Assembly: GCA_944324215.1 (NCBI GenBank)
Contig: CALUVP010000162.1
Span: 1-53,520, forward strand
Direction: 5' to 3'
Length of the DNA stretch: 53,520 nucleotides
Source of the DNA: Candidatus Gastranaerophilales bacterium
Lineage (GTDB): Bacteria > Cyanobacteriota > Vampirovibrionia > Gastranaerophilales > Gastranaerophilaceae
The translations under genes were made by a program, and so were the position numbers. Positions 16,401 through 23,676 of this stretch are shown here, piece after piece; position 1 is the stretch's first letter, and every line of letters starts with the position of its first letter. Under the pieces are notes generated by a model that saw only the letters and a program-made list of their open reading frames with translations, searched no databases and was not told the DNA's origin.

Positions 16401-16456
16401 GTTAGAAAAGGTTGTAGAAAATTTTAAATCCGGTTCTAAAACCGGATTTTTTTTAT
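16401..16456 (+). ncRNA. Candidate ~50-nt small RNA
   Basis: The segment lies between the motif at 16364-16400 and the terminator at 16426-16456. It has no start codon or reading frame. Its first 25 nt (GGTTAGAAAAGGTTGTAGAA) resemble the untranslated leader of the gene at 33562-34563. It could equally be a dead promoter. Confidence 0.3.
16426..16456. terminator. Bidirectional intrinsic terminator
   Basis: AAATCCGGTT/AACCGGATTT with a 4-base loop (CTAA), followed by a T run on the plus strand and flanked by A/T on the other. It lies between the HTH gene and convergent lpxB. Confidence 0.8.
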
Positions 16457-17574
16457 ACTAAAGCTTTTTGAATTTCATTTGCAACTTCTTGAGCCGAATA
16501 CATATCAGAAAGTTTTTCTCTTACATTTCCCAATTTAACAATAACGTCATCACGATATTTTTTATCATATAATAATTTCTCGGTTTCATAACAAATATTC
16601 TCAACACTAAACTTTGTCTGAATAAGTTCTGGAACAATATCCATATCAGTTATAATATTTGGTAAAGAAACTTTCTTTATACACCTTAAAAGCAAATATG
16701 CTAAATACAAAATCCAAGGCCCTTTATACCCAATAATCATAGGAACCTTATATAAAGCAGCTTCTAAAGCAACCGTACCTGAAGCTAAAATCAGAGAGTC
16801 AGAAACACTTAATAAAGCCTGATTTTCTCCTTTGACAACCTTAAAATCAGTATCTTTGACGTATTTATCAAAAATATTATCACTCAAATTTGGAGCATGA
16901 GAAATACAAAACTGTATTTCTGGATGTAATTTTTGCAATTTCTTTGCCGAATTTATAAAAGTTCTTGCCAAAAACTTCAATTCCAAAGGTCTTGACCCTG
17001 GGAAAATTGATACCAAAGGTCTGTTGACATCCAGCCCGTGTTTTGCAAAAAAATCTTCGCGACAAGCTTTTTCAGGCAGCTGTTTTACAAGAGGATGACC
17101 GCAATAATGTACATTTATACCATAATCCCTGTACATTTCCACCTCGAAAGGGAATATACAAAGCACTTCATCTACATATTTTTTTATCCCTTTAATTCGC
17201 CATTTTCTACTTGCCCATACCTGAGGCGGGATATAATGAAAGACCTTTATTCCACTGTTTTTTAGGCGTTTTGCAATCCTTAAATTAAAAGTTCCGTAAT
17301 CTACAAGCAAGACCAAATCTGGTTTATAAACGTTTAAAATATAATCAGAAACTCTCTTTTCTAAAGCTAAATGTTCAAAAGCCATTTTTAAACTAAATCC
17401 GAACCCTGACATCTTAGAATGATCACAAAATATTTTGGAAGCAAACTTCTTTAAATTTTCTCCCCCAATACCTTCTATAACAACATCGGGCATCTGTTTC
17501 TTAAGAATTTCTGCCACACACCCTGCATGAATATCTCCTGAATATTCTCCTGTTATTATAAAAACTTTCTTCAT
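16453..17574 (-). CDS. lpxB: Lipid-A-disaccharide synthase
   Basis: It joins UDP-2,3-diacylglucosamine and lipid X to make the tetraacyl disaccharide of lipid A at the inner membrane. The N-terminus FIITGEYSGDIHAG is diagnostic. GIGGENLKK, DYGTFNLRIAKRLK, SIFPGSRPLELK and the C-terminal GTVALEAALYKVPMIIGY complete the GT19 pattern at a normal 373 residues. It sits 6 bp downstream of lpxI and ends at the terminator 16426-16456, the last gene of the bamA-lpxB run. Confidence 0.96.
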   Translation of the reverse strand: MKKVFIITGEYSGDIHAGCVAEILKKQMPDVVIEGIGGENLKKFASKIFCDHSKMSGFGFSLKMAFEHLALEKRVSDYILNVYKPDLVLLVDYGTFNLRIAKRLKNSGIKVFHYIPPQVWASRKWRIKGIKKYVDEVLCIFPFEVEMYRDYGINVHYCGHPLVKQLPEKACREDFFAKHGLDVNRPLVSIFPGSRPLELKFLARTFINSAKKLQKLHPEIQFCISHAPNLSDNIFDKYVKDTDFKVVKGENQALLSVSDSLILASGTVALEAALYKVPMIIGYKGPWILYLAYLLLRCIKKVSLPNIITDMDIVPELIQTKFSVENICYETEKLLYDKKYRDDVIVKLGNVREKLSDMYSAQEVANEIQKALV

Positions 17575-17580
17575 AAAATC

Positions 17581-18396
17581 TTACACTGCCATTACTACAA
17601 TGTTATGCTTATTTGCATACTTAATAACATCTTCTCTATCAACAATAATTGTTTCTCCAGCCTCAACTGCTATTAAATCTGCTTTGTATTTTTTCATTGT
17701 CTTTAATGTCCTAAGCCCAATTGCAGGAATATCAAAACGTTTGTCTTGAGAAGGTTTTGCAACCTTTATAACTCTTGAATGGTTCTTAGCAATTTTGCAC
17801 CCTCGTTTAATACATTTATCGGTACCCTCAATTGCCTCAACCGCCATAACCATTTTATCCTTTATTACTACAGACTGACCTATATCTAATTTTCCTGTTT
17901 CTTTTGCAAGCCAATAACCGTAATTTACATCATCTATCTGTTCTTGACTCGGCTGTGATATTCCTAATACTCCTGACGGTATCATAAGTTTTTTTATAAA
18001 CAATGTTTGATCCAAAATTGTTATGCCAATCTTCTCTAGCTCATCTATAATCATTAACATAACTTTATCATCATTGAGTCTTATGGCTTTTTTTATAAAT
18101 TCCACCGCTCTTGAATCAAATTTTGGACGTTTTAACAATATAGTCTTGCTAACCTTTCCCAAGAAAGTTATTTGTTTTATTCCTTCTGACTTTAATGTAT
18201 CCTCAATTTTTTGCACTTCTCCAGGACAAAAAGAATAAACTTTTGAGCAGTATTTTTTTAATTGCGAACAATTGTCATTTGAAAGCGAAATTGCAACAAC
18301 ATCAAAACCGTTTTCTTTCGCGTACTGAGCCATTTTTACAGGCAAAAGACCGTCTCCTGCTATCAAACCTTGTTTTTGTTCCAATACTACTGACAT
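17581..18396 (-). CDS. lpxI: UDP-2,3-diacylglucosamine pyrophosphatase LpxI
   Basis: It hydrolyses UDP-2,3-diacylglucosamine to lipid X, the step done by LpxH in E. coli. The 271-residue protein matches the LpxI (DUF1009) family: GLIAGDGLLP near the N-terminus, FLGKVSKTILL, GYWLAKETGKLDIGQSVVIK, VEAIEGTD and the C-terminal VEAGETIIVD. It lies 6 bp upstream of lpxB, which uses its product. A strong AGGAGG precedes the start, with TAAAAT upstream, so a secondary promoter is possible. Confidence 0.95.
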   Translation of the reverse strand: MSVVLEQKQGLIAGDGLLPVKMAQYAKENGFDVVAISLSNDNCSQLKKYCSKVYSFCPGEVQKIEDTLKSEGIKQITFLGKVSKTILLKRPKFDSRAVEFIKKAIRLNDDKVMLMIIDELEKIGITILDQTLFIKKLMIPSGVLGISQPSQEQIDDVNYGYWLAKETGKLDIGQSVVIKDKMVMAVEAIEGTDKCIKRGCKIAKNHSRVIKVAKPSQDKRFDIPAIGLRTLKTMKKYKADLIAVEAGETIIVDREDVIKYANKHNIVVMAV

Positions 18397-18489: not shown

Positions 18490-19965
18490 TTATGAAACTT
18501 TTCCAACAAATTTTATATTATAGTTACTTACCAATTCTTCATAAGCCAAAACTGTCAAGTCTTGGATAAACTCTGACATAATCACAAAAACCATGTGCCT
18601 TATATCCATCGGAACCGCCACAATTGGAGATACTATCTTCTTTGATTTCGCAAATTTCATAAGTTTTGTAACTATATCTTGTATTTCTGTTGAATCTATA
18701 CGTATAATCGACTCTTCTTCATCCTCCTTGAAAAATGAATATATTTTATCAATTATCTCGTCTGAAAACTCTATAACTTTCAGCTCGCCATCCTGCGCTA
18801 AATCTTTTATTATATGCTTTGATAGAGCCAAACGAACTTTGTCTAACAAATCTTCTTTAGTTGGCTCATTGGCATAATCATTTATTTTCTCAAAAATATA
18901 AACTATATTTTTTACTGAAACATGTTCTCTTACAAGACAAGTTAGCAAGTATTTCAAATCGGATGCAGTTATAAAATCAGGAATTATATTGTCTACCAAG
19001 AAAGAATTTGTTTCTATAACCTTTTCAACATATTTATTAACATCGTTGTAGTCCATAATATCAGAAACTTCTTTTACAGCAATATATTCAATAGCTTTAC
19101 CAATGTATTCGACAGCAGTAAGTCCCTGCACCCAAAAATCTTTCACCTTTTCCTTCGGTAACCAAACCATTTTTTTACCGGTTATATCATCAGTTACAAC
19201 AATGTCTTCTTCTGATGATTTATACCCTTTTAATTCATCTTTATAAAAAGCCACACATTCAGGAAATACAACTGATCGAAAAACTTCAATATCGTGTATT
19301 TTTATATTAAATTCATTTTGCAAAAGCTCATCACTATTATGAAAATGTATGTGAGGAATTACATATCCCAAACGCTCTGCTAATTTTTGACGAATTTTTA
19401 CAGTTTCAGCAAGAAGATTATCATTCTCTTCCATTGAAACCACTTCCAGAATTTCTTCCGATAAATTAACAACAAACTTTTCTTCTTTGATTGCAGTATA
19501 CATAGCATCTGGAGAAATTTCATTTACCAACTGTTGTTTCAATATATCTAACTGCCTCAACTCATCTGACATCTGATTGTTTAGCTGCTTTTTCTTCTCC
19601 GGTGACAAATGCTCGCTTTCTAACTGTGACTTTATTTTTTTTATTCGTTCTTTTTGATTAGCAATCTTAAGTTGAATTTCTTTACACGAAGCGTATGGAC
19701 TCGATGGTGCCGCAAGCATTTTTTCCATTCGATACTTGAAACTTGTTATATTAACGATATCATCTAAATCTGTAGAATCTTCTTCCTGTTTTTCTCTCAT
19801 AAAAATACAGTTAAAATCATAAGATGATTCTGTTTCCACCTCGTGCATAGTATATAAATCCCATCCGGCATCAGACATTTCATTTAACAAATTTTCTAAT
19901 GCCTGCGCATCATCTGTTGGGACTGATTTTATTAAATATTGCATTCTTTTATTAAACATCGTCAT
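18490..19965 (-). CDS. DUF4177-like module fused to a soluble FlhA (FHIPEP) cytoplasmic domain
   Basis: Residues 7-60 resemble DUF4177 (ALENLLNEMSDAGWDLYTMH). Residues about 95-148 are a charged coiled coil. Residues about 165-491 follow the FlhA/SctV C-terminal domain throughout: IRQKLAERLGYVIPHIHF, then LLTCLVREHVSVKNIVYIFE, and the final LTVLAYEELVSNYNIKFVGK. The membrane half of FlhA is absent and no hydrophobic segment is present. The gene overlaps pdp by up to 14 bp; ATGs at 19965 and 19959 are both possible, and AAGGA favours 19959. It lies inside the bamA-skp-lpxI-lpxB cluster. A role in docking export substrates or chaperones is inferred. Confidence 0.82.
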   Translation of the reverse strand: MTMFNKRMQYLIKSVPTDDAQALENLLNEMSDAGWDLYTMHEVETESSYDFNCIFMREKQEEDSTDLDDIVNITSFKYRMEKMLAAPSSPYASCKEIQLKIANQKERIKKIKSQLESEHLSPEKKKQLNNQMSDELRQLDILKQQLVNEISPDAMYTAIKEEKFVVNLSEEILEVVSMEENDNLLAETVKIRQKLAERLGYVIPHIHFHNSDELLQNEFNIKIHDIEVFRSVVFPECVAFYKDELKGYKSSEEDIVVTDDITGKKMVWLPKEKVKDFWVQGLTAVEYIGKAIEYIAVKEVSDIMDYNDVNKYVEKVIETNSFLVDNIIPDFITASDLKYLLTCLVREHVSVKNIVYIFEKINDYANEPTKEDLLDKVRLALSKHIIKDLAQDGELKVIEFSDEIIDKIYSFFKEDEEESIIRIDSTEIQDIVTKLMKFAKSKKIVSPIVAVPMDIRHMVFVIMSEFIQDLTVLAYEELVSNYNIKFVGKVS

Positions 19966-21283
19966 CTTCTTCCTTTGAACTTATTATTTTATATATCAAA
20001 TTATTAACAGGAGGTTTTGTATCATTTATTGAAAATGCATCATCACAAAATCTCTGTGCAGCTTTTGTAGCTTCTTCACTATTTGAATATATTGTATAAA
20101 GCGTTTCACCTTTATGCACATACTCACCGCTTTTCTTATTCAAATATATTCCAACACTTAAATCTATAGGTTTTGAACTATTTTCTCTTGCAGCACCTAA
20201 CTCTTTTAAAGCTAAAGATATATTGTGAGCATTTATAATTTGAACAAAACCATTTTTCTTAGACTCACACTCGACTTTAAAACTTGGCAAAGTAAATTTA
20301 TCGTAGTTATCCAAAACTTCAGCCGCACCACCTTGAGCAATAATCAGTTCTCTGAATTTCTCCAAAGCCTTACCCGAATTTACAAGACTTTTTAAGTATA
20401 AATCAGCCTCTTTGCTATTATCAAACATTTCCATTTGCAATAAAACAGTAGATGCTATAGCATAAGTAAGTTCCGCTAAGTCCCCTTTTTTAATTTCTCC
20501 CTTTAAGAACTGAATTGCTTCAATAACCTCTAGCGCATTTCCTACTGCTCTGCCTAAAGGCTCTTCCATAGAAGAAACAATTGCTGTAACAGATTTGTTA
20601 ACAAGTTTGCCGACCTCAACCATCAATTTTGATAGTTGAACAGCATCCTCAGGAGAATCTTTATAAGCACCCGAGCCGTATTTTACATCTATAATTATGT
20701 TTGATGCGCCTGATGCAATCTTTTTAGCTATTATAGAAGATGCTAGCAAATAATCTGAATCTACTGCGGCAATATAATTTCTTAAAACATACATTCTTTT
20801 ATCGGCAGAAGCCAGATCATCAGCCTGAGATGCTATAACTGCATTGATATTCTTGACCTGATTTACAATCGCATGAGTCGACAAATTAGTATTAAAGTTT
20901 GGTATAGATTCTAACTTGTCAACAGTCCCTGCAACACTTCCCAGACCTCTATCCGCAAGCTTTGCAACAGGCATGCCGGCTGCTGCAAGTAACGGAATGA
21001 GAGTTATCGTAACTTTGTCTCCTACACCACCTGTAGAATGTTTATCTATAACTTTGGAAGATAATTCATCAAAATTTATAACCTTACCGGACTTTCCCAA
21101 AGCCTCTGTCAAAAAAGCAGTTTCTTCAACGCTCATTCCCTTAAAACATACAGCCATTAACCACGCTGCGACCTGTGATTCAGAAACCGTTCCGCTCATA
21201 TAAGAAGAGATTATATAATTTATCTCATCCTTTGTTAATGAATAGCCACGTTTCTTTTTTTCAATCAGGTCAACAATATTCAT
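19952..21283 (-). CDS. pdp: Pyrimidine-nucleoside (thymidine) phosphorylase
   Basis: It phosphorolyses uridine, thymidine or deoxyuridine to the base plus (deoxy)ribose 1-phosphate. The signature KHSTGGVGDK lies at 81-90. AAAGMPVAKLADRGLGSVAGT, the DVKYGSGAY motif and SSMEEPLGRAVGNALEV complete the family pattern, and the 443-residue length is typical of Pdp. It starts 2 bp downstream of the skp stop and overlaps the FlhA-C fusion gene, so it is cotranscribed with envelope genes. That placement is odd for a salvage enzyme. Confidence 0.95.
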   Translation of the reverse strand: MNIVDLIEKKKRGYSLTKDEINYIISSYMSGTVSESQVAAWLMAVCFKGMSVEETAFLTEALGKSGKVINFDELSSKVIDKHSTGGVGDKVTITLIPLLAAAGMPVAKLADRGLGSVAGTVDKLESIPNFNTNLSTHAIVNQVKNINAVIASQADDLASADKRMYVLRNYIAAVDSDYLLASSIIAKKIASGASNIIIDVKYGSGAYKDSPEDAVQLSKLMVEVGKLVNKSVTAIVSSMEEPLGRAVGNALEVIEAIQFLKGEIKKGDLAELTYAIASTVLLQMEMFDNSKEADLYLKSLVNSGKALEKFRELIIAQGGAAEVLDNYDKFTLPSFKVECESKKNGFVQIINAHNISLALKELGAARENSSKPIDLSVGIYLNKKSGEYVHKGETLYTIYSNSEEATKAAQRFCDDAFSINDTKPPVNNLIYKIISSKEEDDDV

Positions 21284-21285
21284 TA

Positions 21286-21732
21286 CTATTTAGTACCTTT
21301 CAACTTTGTGATTACGCTATCCGTAATATCAACACCGCCGACAAAAACACCTCTTACATCCATAATGGCATCAAGTTTTTGTTCTACCATAACTGCTTTT
21401 GCTGCTTCTTTAATCTTATTAAAAACTTCTTGTTCTCTTTTTGTTTTTAATGCAACATATGCAGATTCTTTTGCTTTAAATTCTTGTGCTACTTTTTCCT
21501 CAAAAGTCTGCTTCTTTAACGGAGTGTCTAAAGCCTTATATTCTTTTTCCTTATCAACAAGAAATTGCTGCATCTCTAAACCTTTTGCATCAACTTCTTT
21601 AGTTACTTGTTTAGCGTAATCATAATTATCAATTACCTTTACATAATCTATATACCCAACACCACCTGCATGTGCAATACCAGCAAATGCAGTCATAAAT
21701 AAAACAACAAGACCTAATTTTAATTTATTCAT
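21286..21732 (-). CDS. skp: Periplasmic chaperone, Skp/OmpH family
   Basis: It holds unfolded outer-membrane proteins in the periplasm for BamA. The signal peptide ends at AHA (residue 22). The mature start GVGYIDYVKVIDNYDYAKQ fits the OmpH family. A long charged helical hairpin (about 45-115) follows, and a short beta segment near the C-terminus (AIMDVRGVFVGGVDITDSV) closes it. The 148-residue length is normal. It lies 36 bp downstream of bamA on the same strand, the conserved bamA-skp order. Confidence 0.92.
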   Translation of the reverse strand: MNKLKLGLVVLFMTAFAGIAHAGGVGYIDYVKVIDNYDYAKQVTKEVDAKGLEMQQFLVDKEKEYKALDTPLKKQTFEEKVAQEFKAKESAYVALKTKREQEVFNKIKEAAKAVMVEQKLDAIMDVRGVFVGGVDITDSVITKLKGTK

Positions 21733-21768: not shown

Positions 21769-23676
21769 TTAGTACATCATGTCACCTACACCAAAAGTAA
21801 AGTAACCATTAGGCGAGCCATTTGGTCCAGGATTTGTAAGCGGTAAGCCATAGTCTACAGACAAAGGTCCTATACCAGGCATATTTATCTTTAAACCAAT
21901 ACCAGCAGTAATTGCTTGAATTGGTCTATCATATAAAACACTTGAAATTGTTGGATCAAATACTCTACCTGCATCAACCCAGAATGTCAGCCTTAAATTC
22001 TGTAAGAAATTAACTTTCAATCTATCTACAAAAGGTATTGGTGTTGCAAGTTCCGCAGAACCCATAATGAATGCAGTACCTGTACCTACACCATTAACTT
22101 TATAACCTCTGATTGTATAAGGACCACCTAAACGATATGCCATAATTTCAGGCATTTCGTCACCGTGAACTCTTATACCACCTCTTCCGGTAAAGGTCAA
22201 TGATGACTTCTTAGCAATTGGTATAAATTTCTTTGCCATACCTGTCAAACGACCGTTTGTTTTACCAAAGCCGTCCAGCCCGAAAGCTTCTTCATACCTA
22301 ACAGAAGCTAAAACACCGTGTCTTGGATTTATAGACGAATCTCTAGAATCATACGCTAAGCCAGGAGCTAAACGTAAGAAGAATCCTCCATCTAACTGTT
22401 TTGCTCTCTCAGCTATATCCAAATTGTGTTGTTTATACAAATTAGCAATATTATTAGCGTCGCCTTCACTTAAGTGAATATATTCTACACCTGTTGTAAA
22501 GGTAGAAGAAAGATTTCTGTTAAACTTCATCCTATGAGCAACAGTGCCCTCTATACCGATACGGCGCTCTATTGCAAGTGGAATCTGATAGCTACCCAAA
22601 TCTCTAAAATATATTTTACTCATCAAAGAGTTATCAGCATTTAAAAAATGAGGTTCAAAAAAGCTTAATTCAGCTTGATAATTCATATGACTCTTGATTG
22701 AAGAATCACTCATTAAAATACCTGAACCAACTAAACCTGTTAAGGAAACTCTTTGATTCATTCCTCTAAAGTTATTATCAGAAATACCAACAGAACCAAA
22801 AGCACCCGTTGCAGAATCCAAACCACCGCCTATAGAAATAGATGCAGTCCTTTGTTCTTTCAAATCTATTGTAATATCAAACTTATCCGGATCCTCTTCT
22901 GAAACTTCAATTGTTCTATTTACATCCTTAAATGCTTGTGTTGAATATAACCTTACCAAGTCCTGTCTTAGTTGATTTTCGTTATAAACAGTGCCTGGCT
23001 CTGTCATAATATTTCTTTCAATCACATACTCTTTAGTTTTCTCATTACCGGCAATCATAATTTTATTGATCTTACCTTCTGTAATGCTTAAATTAAGAGT
23101 TCCATCAGGATCATCATAAATTGAATCTATTTTTGAAAGAATATACCCTTTTGAATAATAGCATTCGTTAATTTTTTCCAATGCTTGGTTGATAGCTGTA
23201 ATATTTTGGGGCTTTCCTTTTAGTGGAAGTAAATATTGCATAATCTCATCTGACGAAACTACCGTATTTCCCTCAATTGTAAAATCTGTGACAGGAATAT
23301 TTTCTTCAACGATTATTTTTAAAGAAATAGTACCGTTGGAATTTTTAACAGGAATTGCCTTCATTCTTTCTGTGAAATATCCCATACGGAAAATTGTTTT
23401 TAAATCTTGCTGCATGGCATCTTTATCATATAAATCACCTTTTTTGAGAGACATTTTGGACATTATGTACTCTGGTTTGATAATGTTTGCACCAAGAATT
23501 TCTATATCATTGATATAAGAGATATTAGAATTTTCTGAAGCGGATTCTTCTGTATATTCAGGATCATTGAGCATATCATCAACTTCATCAGCAAAAACAA
23601 CACTCGTTGTCGTAATTGCACCAAGAAGTAATGTAAATATTATTAAATTTTTGTATATACTTGATAGATTAGCCAA
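21769..23676 (-). CDS. bamA: Outer-membrane protein assembly factor BamA (Omp85)
   Basis: It folds and inserts beta-barrel proteins into the outer membrane. A signal peptide (1-29, VVFA) is followed by about three POTRA domains (roughly 52-118, 120-195, 200-272) and a barrel from about 285. The barrel holds SIGGGLDSATGAFG, AYDSRDSSINPRHG and the conserved lid-loop motif YTIRGYKV. Proteobacterial BamA has five POTRAs; three is usual for cyanobacterial-type Omp85. The start is a TTG with GGAG upstream; an in-frame TAG lies immediately before it, so no longer start exists. First gene of the run down to lpxB. Confidence 0.95.
   Translation of the reverse strand: MANLSSIYKNLIIFTLLLGAITTTSVVFADEVDDMLNDPEYTEESASENSNISYINDIEILGANIIKPEYIMSKMSLKKGDLYDKDAMQQDLKTIFRMGYFTERMKAIPVKNSNGTISLKIIVEENIPVTDFTIEGNTVVSSDEIMQYLLPLKGKPQNITAINQALEKINECYYSKGYILSKIDSIYDDPDGTLNLSITEGKINKIMIAGNEKTKEYVIERNIMTEPGTVYNENQLRQDLVRLYSTQAFKDVNRTIEVSEEDPDKFDITIDLKEQRTASISIGGGLDSATGAFGSVGISDNNFRGMNQRVSLTGLVGSGILMSDSSIKSHMNYQAELSFFEPHFLNADNSLMSKIYFRDLGSYQIPLAIERRIGIEGTVAHRMKFNRNLSSTFTTGVEYIHLSEGDANNIANLYKQHNLDIAERAKQLDGGFFLRLAPGLAYDSRDSSINPRHGVLASVRYEEAFGLDGFGKTNGRLTGMAKKFIPIAKKSSLTFTGRGGIRVHGDEMPEIMAYRLGGPYTIRGYKVNGVGTGTAFIMGSAELATPIPFVDRLKVNFLQNLRLTFWVDAGRVFDPTISSVLYDRPIQAITAGIGLKINMPGIGPLSVDYGLPLTNPGPNGSPNGYFTFGVGDMMY

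What the first reader, a model, noticed from the sequence alone, without database searches (positions are those of the whole stretch)
18490..19965. Soluble FlhA cytoplasmic domain fused to a DUF4177-like module
FlhA/SctV proteins normally join an eight-helix membrane gate to a cytoplasmic substrate-docking ring. Here the complete cytoplasmic domain (about 165-491) exists without any membrane half. It is preceded by a GWDLY-type DUF4177-like domain and a coiled coil. Loss of the gate but retention of all subdomains, down to the last strand, suggests a selected role. It could be a detachable docking platform or an adaptor for export chaperones. I know of no described system with this architecture. 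The similarity is seen in the sequence; the role is inference.
Basis: partly seen in the sequence, partly recalled or inferred. Interest (0 to 1): 0.82.

Follow-up and report, generated by a model that had tools for sequence, protein, structure and literature searches.

The report
Gate-less FlhA ring domain, order-wide
Almost every gut bacterium of the order Gastranaerophilales carries a conserved, membrane-free copy of the docking ring of its protein-export machine next to the normal membrane-anchored versions; this appears not to have been described, and the protein probably serves a second, flagellin-independent secretion apparatus.

Summary
Window 18490-19965(-) encodes 491 aa: an N-terminal beta-alpha-beta-beta domain related weakly to DUF4177, a predicted helical hairpin, then a complete FlhA/SctV cytoplasmic domain (D1-D4, residues ~158-491) without the membrane gate. 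It is no broken fragment: 172 of 173 Gastranaerophilales genomes in a phylum-wide sample match the family profile, the listed members at full length (~490 aa); dN/dS is about 0.03-0.05 and the family is one clade. No full-length match was seen outside the order. Full-length FlhA coexists in nearly every genome. Flagellated members have two: type 1 with FliPQR-FlhB and, in the genomes tested, flagellins; type 2 beside FliF-FliH-FliI. In 20 near-complete genomes without flagellin, the type-1 system is gone, while type 2, one FliP, one FliF and the soluble protein remain. So it most likely serves the type-2, flagellin-independent apparatus ('System B', my name). It keeps ring-forming D1/D3 at ordinary FlhA-paralogue levels, but D4 has diverged, the GYXLI glycine is Ser and the chaperone-dimple Phe is Thr. 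Best reading: an accessory, gate-less ring subunit or docking platform with altered substrate contacts. The role is inferred; the architecture and conservation are shown. New variant of a known kind.

The parts
18490..19965 (-). Gene for the soluble FlhA-C-like protein, 491 aa. The ATG at 19965 or the ATG at 19959 may be the start (most homologues begin at the latter).
19786..19965 (-). N-terminal DUF4177-like domain, residues 1-60, beta-alpha-beta-beta; 'GWDLY' core with invariant W35, L37, Y38, C53-I54-F55.
19516..19701 (-). Predicted helical hairpin, residues 89-150 (helices 90-115 and 122-150).
19480..19515 (-). Linker resembling the FlhA linker of type-2 FlhA, residues 151-162 (SPDAMY; 39% mean identity to type 2, 14% to type 1).
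18493..19494 (-). FlhA/SctV cytoplasmic domain, residues 158-491, all four subdomains.
19952..21283 (-). Upstream pyrimidine-nucleoside phosphorylase, overlaps the start by 14 nt; part of the conserved bamA-ompH-(deoA or udp)-soluble gene order in Gastranaerophilaceae.
21286..21732 (-). OmpH/Skp-like periplasmic protein (named from its sequence and position after bamA), conserved neighbour.
   Evidence: name from sequence, no NCBIfam match
21769..23676 (-). BamA-like outer-membrane assembly factor (named from its sequence), conserved neighbour at the head of the cluster.
   Evidence: name from sequence
17581..18396 (-). LpxI-like UDP-2,3-diacylglucosamine diphosphatase, next gene downstream on the same strand, followed by lpxB (16453-17574). 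Context only.

Best explanation
A vertically inherited, gate-less paralogue of the FlhA export-gate ring. It arose once, before Gastranaerophilales diversified, by joining the FlhA linker plus cytoplasmic domain, most likely of type-2 FlhA, to a DUF4177-like domain and a helical hairpin. SHOWN: architecture, fold prediction, single clade, purifying selection, near-universal presence in the order, coexistence with full-length FlhA, and persistence with System B after flagellin and the type-1 system are lost. INFERRED: it is an accessory cytoplasmic component of System B, a second flagellum-derived type III secretion apparatus (FliE-F-H, FlhA2, FliPQR, FlhB, rod-like proteins, no flagellin or hook cap). 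It would co-assemble with, or stack on, the FlhA2 ring through D1/D3, while its changed D2/D4 and its N-terminal module give a different substrate or cofactor docking surface. As it is not membrane-bound, it could exchange on and off the gate.
For: Profile and fold. Present in 172 of 173 Gastranaerophilales genomes with an FHIPEP hit in a phylum-wide draw, inferred from best E below 1e-100. 33 of 34 same-genus and 21 of 22 other same-order genomes, the two misses being 80-83% complete. Monophyletic with 100/100 support. dN/dS about 0.03-0.05, synonymous sites near saturation. In 20 of 20 flagellin-less f1 genomes FliP is single, FliF is single except G119, no type-1 FlhA remains, and type-2 FlhA and the soluble protein are both present; FlhB is single apart from a weak extra hit in one of 10 tested and FlgD absent in all 10 tested. 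Closer to type-2 than type-1 FlhA in score (125 vs 62 bits) and in the linker (39% vs 14%). D1/D3 identity to type 2 (0.33/0.36) equals that between type 1 and type 2 (0.35/0.33), whereas D4 has dropped (0.19 vs 0.34). In one genome of a sister order (G086) a 289-aa FlhA-C-only protein lies 126 nt downstream of type-2 FlhA on the same strand. In family f7 the gene is followed by fliJ-fliK-flgD-flgE, about 13 kb from the System B core.
Against: In Gastranaerophilaceae the gene sits with bamA-ompH-deoA/udp, not with export genes. The f7 hook neighbours probably belong to the type-1 flagellum, because FlgD is missing from flagellin-less genomes. Other orders of the class have type-2 FlhA without the soluble protein, so System B does not generally need it. 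One genome (G397) appears to have type 2 without it, and one (G369) the reverse (from E-values). No ring or complex prediction could be run. The tree places the family near type 2, but on a long branch beside another long one.
Confidence: 0.5

Rival explanations
1. It is a cytosolic carrier or titrator that works off the membrane: it binds substrates or chaperones of either secretion system and controls their delivery or levels, without entering the gate ring.
For: No gate; AlphaFold and hydropathy show no membrane segment in the core protein. D2 and D4, the known docking surfaces, are the diverged parts, with family-specific conserved residues such as W278 and Y306.
Against: D1/D3 and the linker, the parts that make rings in FlhA, are as conserved as between full-length paralogues. 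The canonical chaperone-dimple Phe is lost.
Confidence: 0.25
2. It has been recruited to envelope biogenesis together with bamA/ompH and no longer has anything to do with secretion.
For: Operon-like bamA-ompH-(deoA or udp)-soluble order in 87 of 105 loci with enough flank, often with overlapping genes.
Against: That order is absent in the other families of the order that have the protein (L036-L053), and the nucleotide-phosphorylase neighbour is swapped between genera, so the cluster looks like a later placement. In f7 the neighbours are flagellar genes.
Confidence: 0.12
3. It works with the canonical (type-1) flagellum, for example in the hook-to-filament export switch.
For: f7 linkage to fliJ-fliK-flgD-flgE.
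Against: The protein is kept in 20 of 20 flagellin-less genomes that have lost type-1 FlhA, the second FliP and the second FliF.
Confidence: 0.08
4. It is a decaying FlhA fragment or an assembly or frameshift artefact.
For: Only the lack of the membrane half.
Against: Same length and architecture in over a hundred independent genomes, strong purifying selection including the N-terminal part, no adjacent membrane half.
Confidence: 0.01

Closest known systems
FlhA / SctV (FHIPEP family), cytoplasmic nonameric docking ring
   Same: Whole D1-D4 cytoplasmic fold, Z 30 to Salmonella and Vibrio FlhA-C; linker and D1/D3 signatures kept.
   Different: No membrane gate; N-terminal DUF4177-like domain plus helical hairpin instead; GYXLI Gly to Ser, dimple Phe to Thr, D4 strongly diverged. 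Coexists with full-length FlhA.
Chlamydia FlhA alongside CdsV (PMC2830194)
   Same: More than one FHIPEP protein in one cell, with flagellar-type proteins beside a type III secretion system.
   Different: There the extra copy is, as I recall, an ordinary membrane-spanning FlhA; no soluble version is known to me (from memory, not tested).
Melainabacteria flagellar gene set (Di Rienzi 2013, PMC3787301)
   Different: The second flhA is not characterised there; as MEL.A1 lacks a filament, it may be this soluble protein (my inference). No gate-less architecture is reported in the passages read.
DUF4177 (PF13783)
   Same: Most N-domains of the family match it weakly; beta-alpha-beta-beta.
   Different: Below Pfam's cut-off for the window's own protein; here fused to FlhA-C and not found separately in the 13 order genomes tested.

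Membership tests
FlhA/SctV export gate (FHIPEP) | Significant profile match | tested here: met
   PF00771 E 9.8e-47, 160 bits over a 29.1-bit cut-off
FlhA/SctV export gate (FHIPEP) | Full-length equivalog (FlhA TIGR01398 or SctV TIGR01399 cut-off) | tested here: not met
   138.8 of 772.1 bits; 92.2 of 692.25 bits
FlhA/SctV export gate (FHIPEP) | N-terminal membrane gate of about eight helices | tested here: not met
   Profile positions 1-311 unmatched. No membrane segment modelled. In the window protein the only 19-residue stretch over the hydropathy threshold lies inside D4, while full-length copies give 6-8
FlhA/SctV export gate (FHIPEP) | Cytoplasmic D1-D4 fold | tested here: met
   VIA Z 30.4 over 323-331 residues to 6ch2 and 7amy
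FlhA/SctV export gate (FHIPEP) | GYXLI switch motif (Gly-368 in Salmonella, PMC9431611) | tested here: not met
   Ser in 95% of 116 members; Gly in 100% of local type 1 and type 2
FlhA/SctV export gate (FHIPEP) | Chaperone dimple Phe-459 (PMC8166844) | tested here: not met
   Thr in 86% of members; Phe 100% in type 1, Tyr 90% in type 2 (the position was equated through the conserved E/D-P-x-F motif)
FlhA/SctV export gate (FHIPEP) | Nonameric ring | not testable with these tools
   No multimer prediction available
DUF4177 | Pfam curated score | tested here: not met
   Window domain 14.6 bits against 25; 17 of 18 homologues hit at E<=1, best 6.2e-5
DUF4177 | Fold | tested here: inconclusive
   beta-alpha-beta-beta model; only weak PDB matches, Z<=5.8, and no DUF4177 structure recognised among them
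Component of System B (type-2 FlhA apparatus) | Kept with System B when the type-1 flagellar system is lost | tested here: met
   20 of 20 flagellin-less f1 genomes
Component of System B (type-2 FlhA apparatus) | Encoded in the System B operon | tested here: not met
   Elsewhere in f1; only near it in f7. A truncated FlhA-C is operonic in one genome of a sister order
Component of System B (type-2 FlhA apparatus) | Physical interaction or secretion phenotype | not testable with these tools
   Needs experiment

The most novel reading that the evidence does not exclude
Type III secretion in an entire gut bacterial order uses a second, detachable docking ring: a gate-less FlhA-C with its own N-terminal module that exchanges on and off the FlhA2 gate of a flagellum-derived, flagellin-free secretion machine and sets which substrates it exports.
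Probability: 0.35. Interest if true: 0.82.

Novelty: new variant of a known kind. Interest (0 to 1): 0.63.

Why it matters
FlhA and SctV are the subunits that join the proton-driven gate to the substrate-docking ring, and how the two halves are coupled is an open question. An order in which the ring half has been inherited on its own for a long time, beside intact FlhAs, is a natural separation-of-function experiment. It also points to a conserved, flagellin-free secretion apparatus in common gut Gastranaerophilales. Earlier work read the incomplete gene sets as an incomplete flagellum or loss of motility (PMC5877343, PMC4451040).

Tried and rejected
Broken-gene or frameshift idea: rejected (no adjacent membrane half, conserved length, low dN/dS). 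Partner is the canonical flagellum: rejected as sole partner, since the protein survives its loss. Neighbourhood as the main clue: in f1 it points to bamA/ompH, in f7 to hook genes, so it does not settle function. I first read the f7 hook genes as System B; FlgD's absence from flagellin-less genomes makes them more likely type-1 genes. N-domain fold search: no PDB match at E<=0.001, best VIA Z 5.8 (KCTD5 C-terminal domain, GNATs), not interpretable. The 340-aa protein between FliF and FliH sits in the FliG position but has no Pfam match, so I do not call it FliG. Hydropathy threshold: 30 of 116 members have a stretch just over 1.6, nearly always inside D4 at about residue 444-468, not a membrane gate. 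Papers: no soluble FlhA or gate-less FHIPEP description found.

Full report
OBSERVATION. The reported ORF is real: window 18490-19965, minus strand, 491 aa, no internal stop. Pfam FHIPEP matches residues 126-481 against profile positions 312-655 of 657 at E 9.8e-47. PDB sequences of B. subtilis FlhA-C (3mix, E 2.4e-22) and H. pylori FlhA-C (3myd) match 147-490. AlphaFold2 with 28 homologues (mean pLDDT 79.7) gives strand-helix-strand-strand (8-58), a low-confidence linker, two helices (90-115, 122-150) and an FlhA-C fold. Foldseek's top matches are FlhA-C and SctV-C structures. VIA aligns residues 161-491 with Salmonella FlhA 360-690 at Z 30.4, rmsd 3.2 over 323 residues. The DUF4177 label is reasonable but weak: 14.6 bits for the window's own domain (cut-off 25), and 17 of 18 homologous N-domains hit it at E<=1, best 6.2e-5.

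NOT A FRAGMENT. The gene next to it upstream on the same strand is a pyrimidine-nucleoside phosphorylase, overlapping by 14 nt. Homologues of the same length are in 33 of 34 same-genus and 21 of 22 other same-order genomes; the two misses are 80-83% complete. They are in 52 of 52 drawn genomes of the window's family, and in 172 of 173 Gastranaerophilales genomes of a phylum-wide draw, judged by best E below 1e-100. Organism names come from record titles of close homologues (Candidatus Gastranaerophilales). Outside the order, the listed matches covered only the FlhA-C part, from about position 122 onward, mostly in open frames of about 700 aa. The N-domain was found only at the head of this protein in 13 order genomes and not at all in three genomes of other orders. 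dN/dS within the genus is about 0.03-0.05, also in the first 95 codons, although synonymous sites are close to saturation.

TWO FULL-LENGTH FlhAs AND TWO APPARATUSES. Flagellated members have two full-length FHIPEP proteins. Type 1 lies with FliP-FliQ-FliR-FlhB (L058, L071). Type 2 lies with FliE-FliF-(unknown, FliG position)-FliH-FlhA2-FliI in f7 (L057). FliP, FliF and FlhB are likewise present twice. Twenty f1 genomes from other genera, all 99% complete, have no flagellin at all. They have one FliP, one FliF except G119, and, of FHIPEP, only type 2 and the soluble protein plus extra partial copies in two. Ten of them were tested for FlhB (single, apart from a weak second hit in G147), FlgD (absent) and rod-type proteins (2-4 hits). 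I call the remaining set System B: a flagellum-type export apparatus with rod-like proteins but no hook cap and no flagellin. The soluble FlhA-C is kept with it in all 20.

EVOLUTION. In a maximum-likelihood tree of C-domains the soluble proteins form one clade (100/100) on a long branch. By score they are closer to type 2 than to type 1 (125 vs 62 bits), and the linker just before D1 keeps 39% identity to type 2 against 14% to type 1. I infer origin from a type-2-like FlhA, but the exact attachment is not settled, because a second long branch joins nearby.

WHAT CHANGED. Mean identity of the soluble family to type 2 is 0.33 in D1a and 0.36 in D3, the same as between the two full-length types (0.35, 0.33). 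In D4 it falls to 0.19, against 0.34 between the full-length types (domain bounds transferred from Salmonella FlhA by memory). The GYXLI glycine, which PMC9431611 describes as critical for the open-close motion, is Ser in 95% of 116 soluble sequences. The residue equivalent to Phe-459 of the chaperone dimple (PMC8166844) is Thr in 86%, against Phe in all type 1 and Tyr in 90% of type 2. PMC8166844 places FliJ binding at the linker and the cleft between D4 domains, so FliJ contacts may also differ. This pattern, ring parts kept and docking parts changed, is why I favour an accessory ring subunit over a plain chaperone adaptor. It remains inference.

CONTEXT. In Gastranaerophilaceae the gene is in an operon-like run bamA-ompH-(deoA or udp)-soluble in 87 of 105 loci. 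In the window, lpxI and lpxB follow, and a terminator-like stem lies after lpxB (a consensus match only). In other families of the order this arrangement is absent. In f7 the gene is followed by fliJ, fliK, flgD, flgE (Pfam), about 13 kb from the System B core on the same contig (L037 and L057 are adjacent parts of G044 C1). Because FlgD is missing from flagellin-less genomes, those hook genes more likely belong to the type-1 flagellum.

RECURRENCE OF GATE-LESS FlhA-C. In G086, of a sister order, a 289-aa FlhA-C protein (Pfam FHIPEP 3.2e-16) lies 126 nt downstream of type-2 FlhA on the same strand. In some Gastranaerophilaceae the N-terminal domain of the FliG-position protein is fused through membrane segments to FlhA-C (L158, L159, 593 aa), and once further to a T3SS ATPase (L056, 995 aa: FHIPEP 8.5e-56, ATP-synt_ab 1.9e-38, T3SS_ATPase_C 7.4e-14). 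Shorter FHIPEP pieces of 105, 213 and 285 aa also occur. These fusions suggest that FlhA-C, the FliG-position protein and the ATPase act together in the type-2 system, and that detaching FlhA-C from its gate has happened several times here.

KNOWN OR NOT. Nothing in the library searched describes a soluble FlhA paralogue. Di Rienzi et al. 2013 (PMC3787301) list two flhA genes among flagellar genes shared by four Melainabacteria, one of them a genome without filament genes; I suspect the second is this protein, but could not test it. The library omits most subscription papers.

VERDICT. The protein fails the defining features of an FlhA gate (membrane domain, switch motif, dimple Phe), so it should be named as an FlhA-C paralogue, not FlhA. 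It is a new variant of a known kind; what it does needs an experiment or a multimer prediction.

Noticed in passing
L056:7697-10684 (G010 C17): 995-aa protein joining the N-domain of the FliG-position protein, membrane segments, FlhA-C and a FliI-type ATPase; not in a flagellar operon.
   Followed up: partly
L158:9042-10823 and L159:8633-10411 (G134 C9, G151 C3): About 593-aa proteins: FliG-position N-domain, membrane segments, FlhA-C; next to response-regulator genes.
   Followed up: partly
L183:5998-6867 (G086 C2, sister order): 289-aa FlhA-C-only protein 126 nt downstream of type-2 FlhA in the System B cluster.
   Followed up: partly
L073:9505-9822 (own genome, C119:17504-17821): 105-aa ORF resembling only FlhA D1, overlapping the 3' end of the System B fliF gene.
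   Followed up: partly
L160:8567-9424, L161:848-1489, L162:203-844: Mini FHIPEP proteins of 285, 213 and 213 aa covering D1 and part of D3.
   Followed up: partly
G000 C87 (L072:1-3653): A second copy of FliG-position gene, fliH and type-2 flhA in the window's own genome; could be a real duplicate or binning contamination (7.8%).
   Followed up: no
Genomes, e.g. G014:C24, G032:C16, G039:C2: Flagellin N-terminal domains at the start of very long open frames (1300-2085 aa) in flagellated members.
   Followed up: no
L169:11294-12316 and equivalents: Protein of about 340 aa between FliF and FliH with no Pfam match; occupies the FliG position in the type-2 operon.
   Followed up: partly
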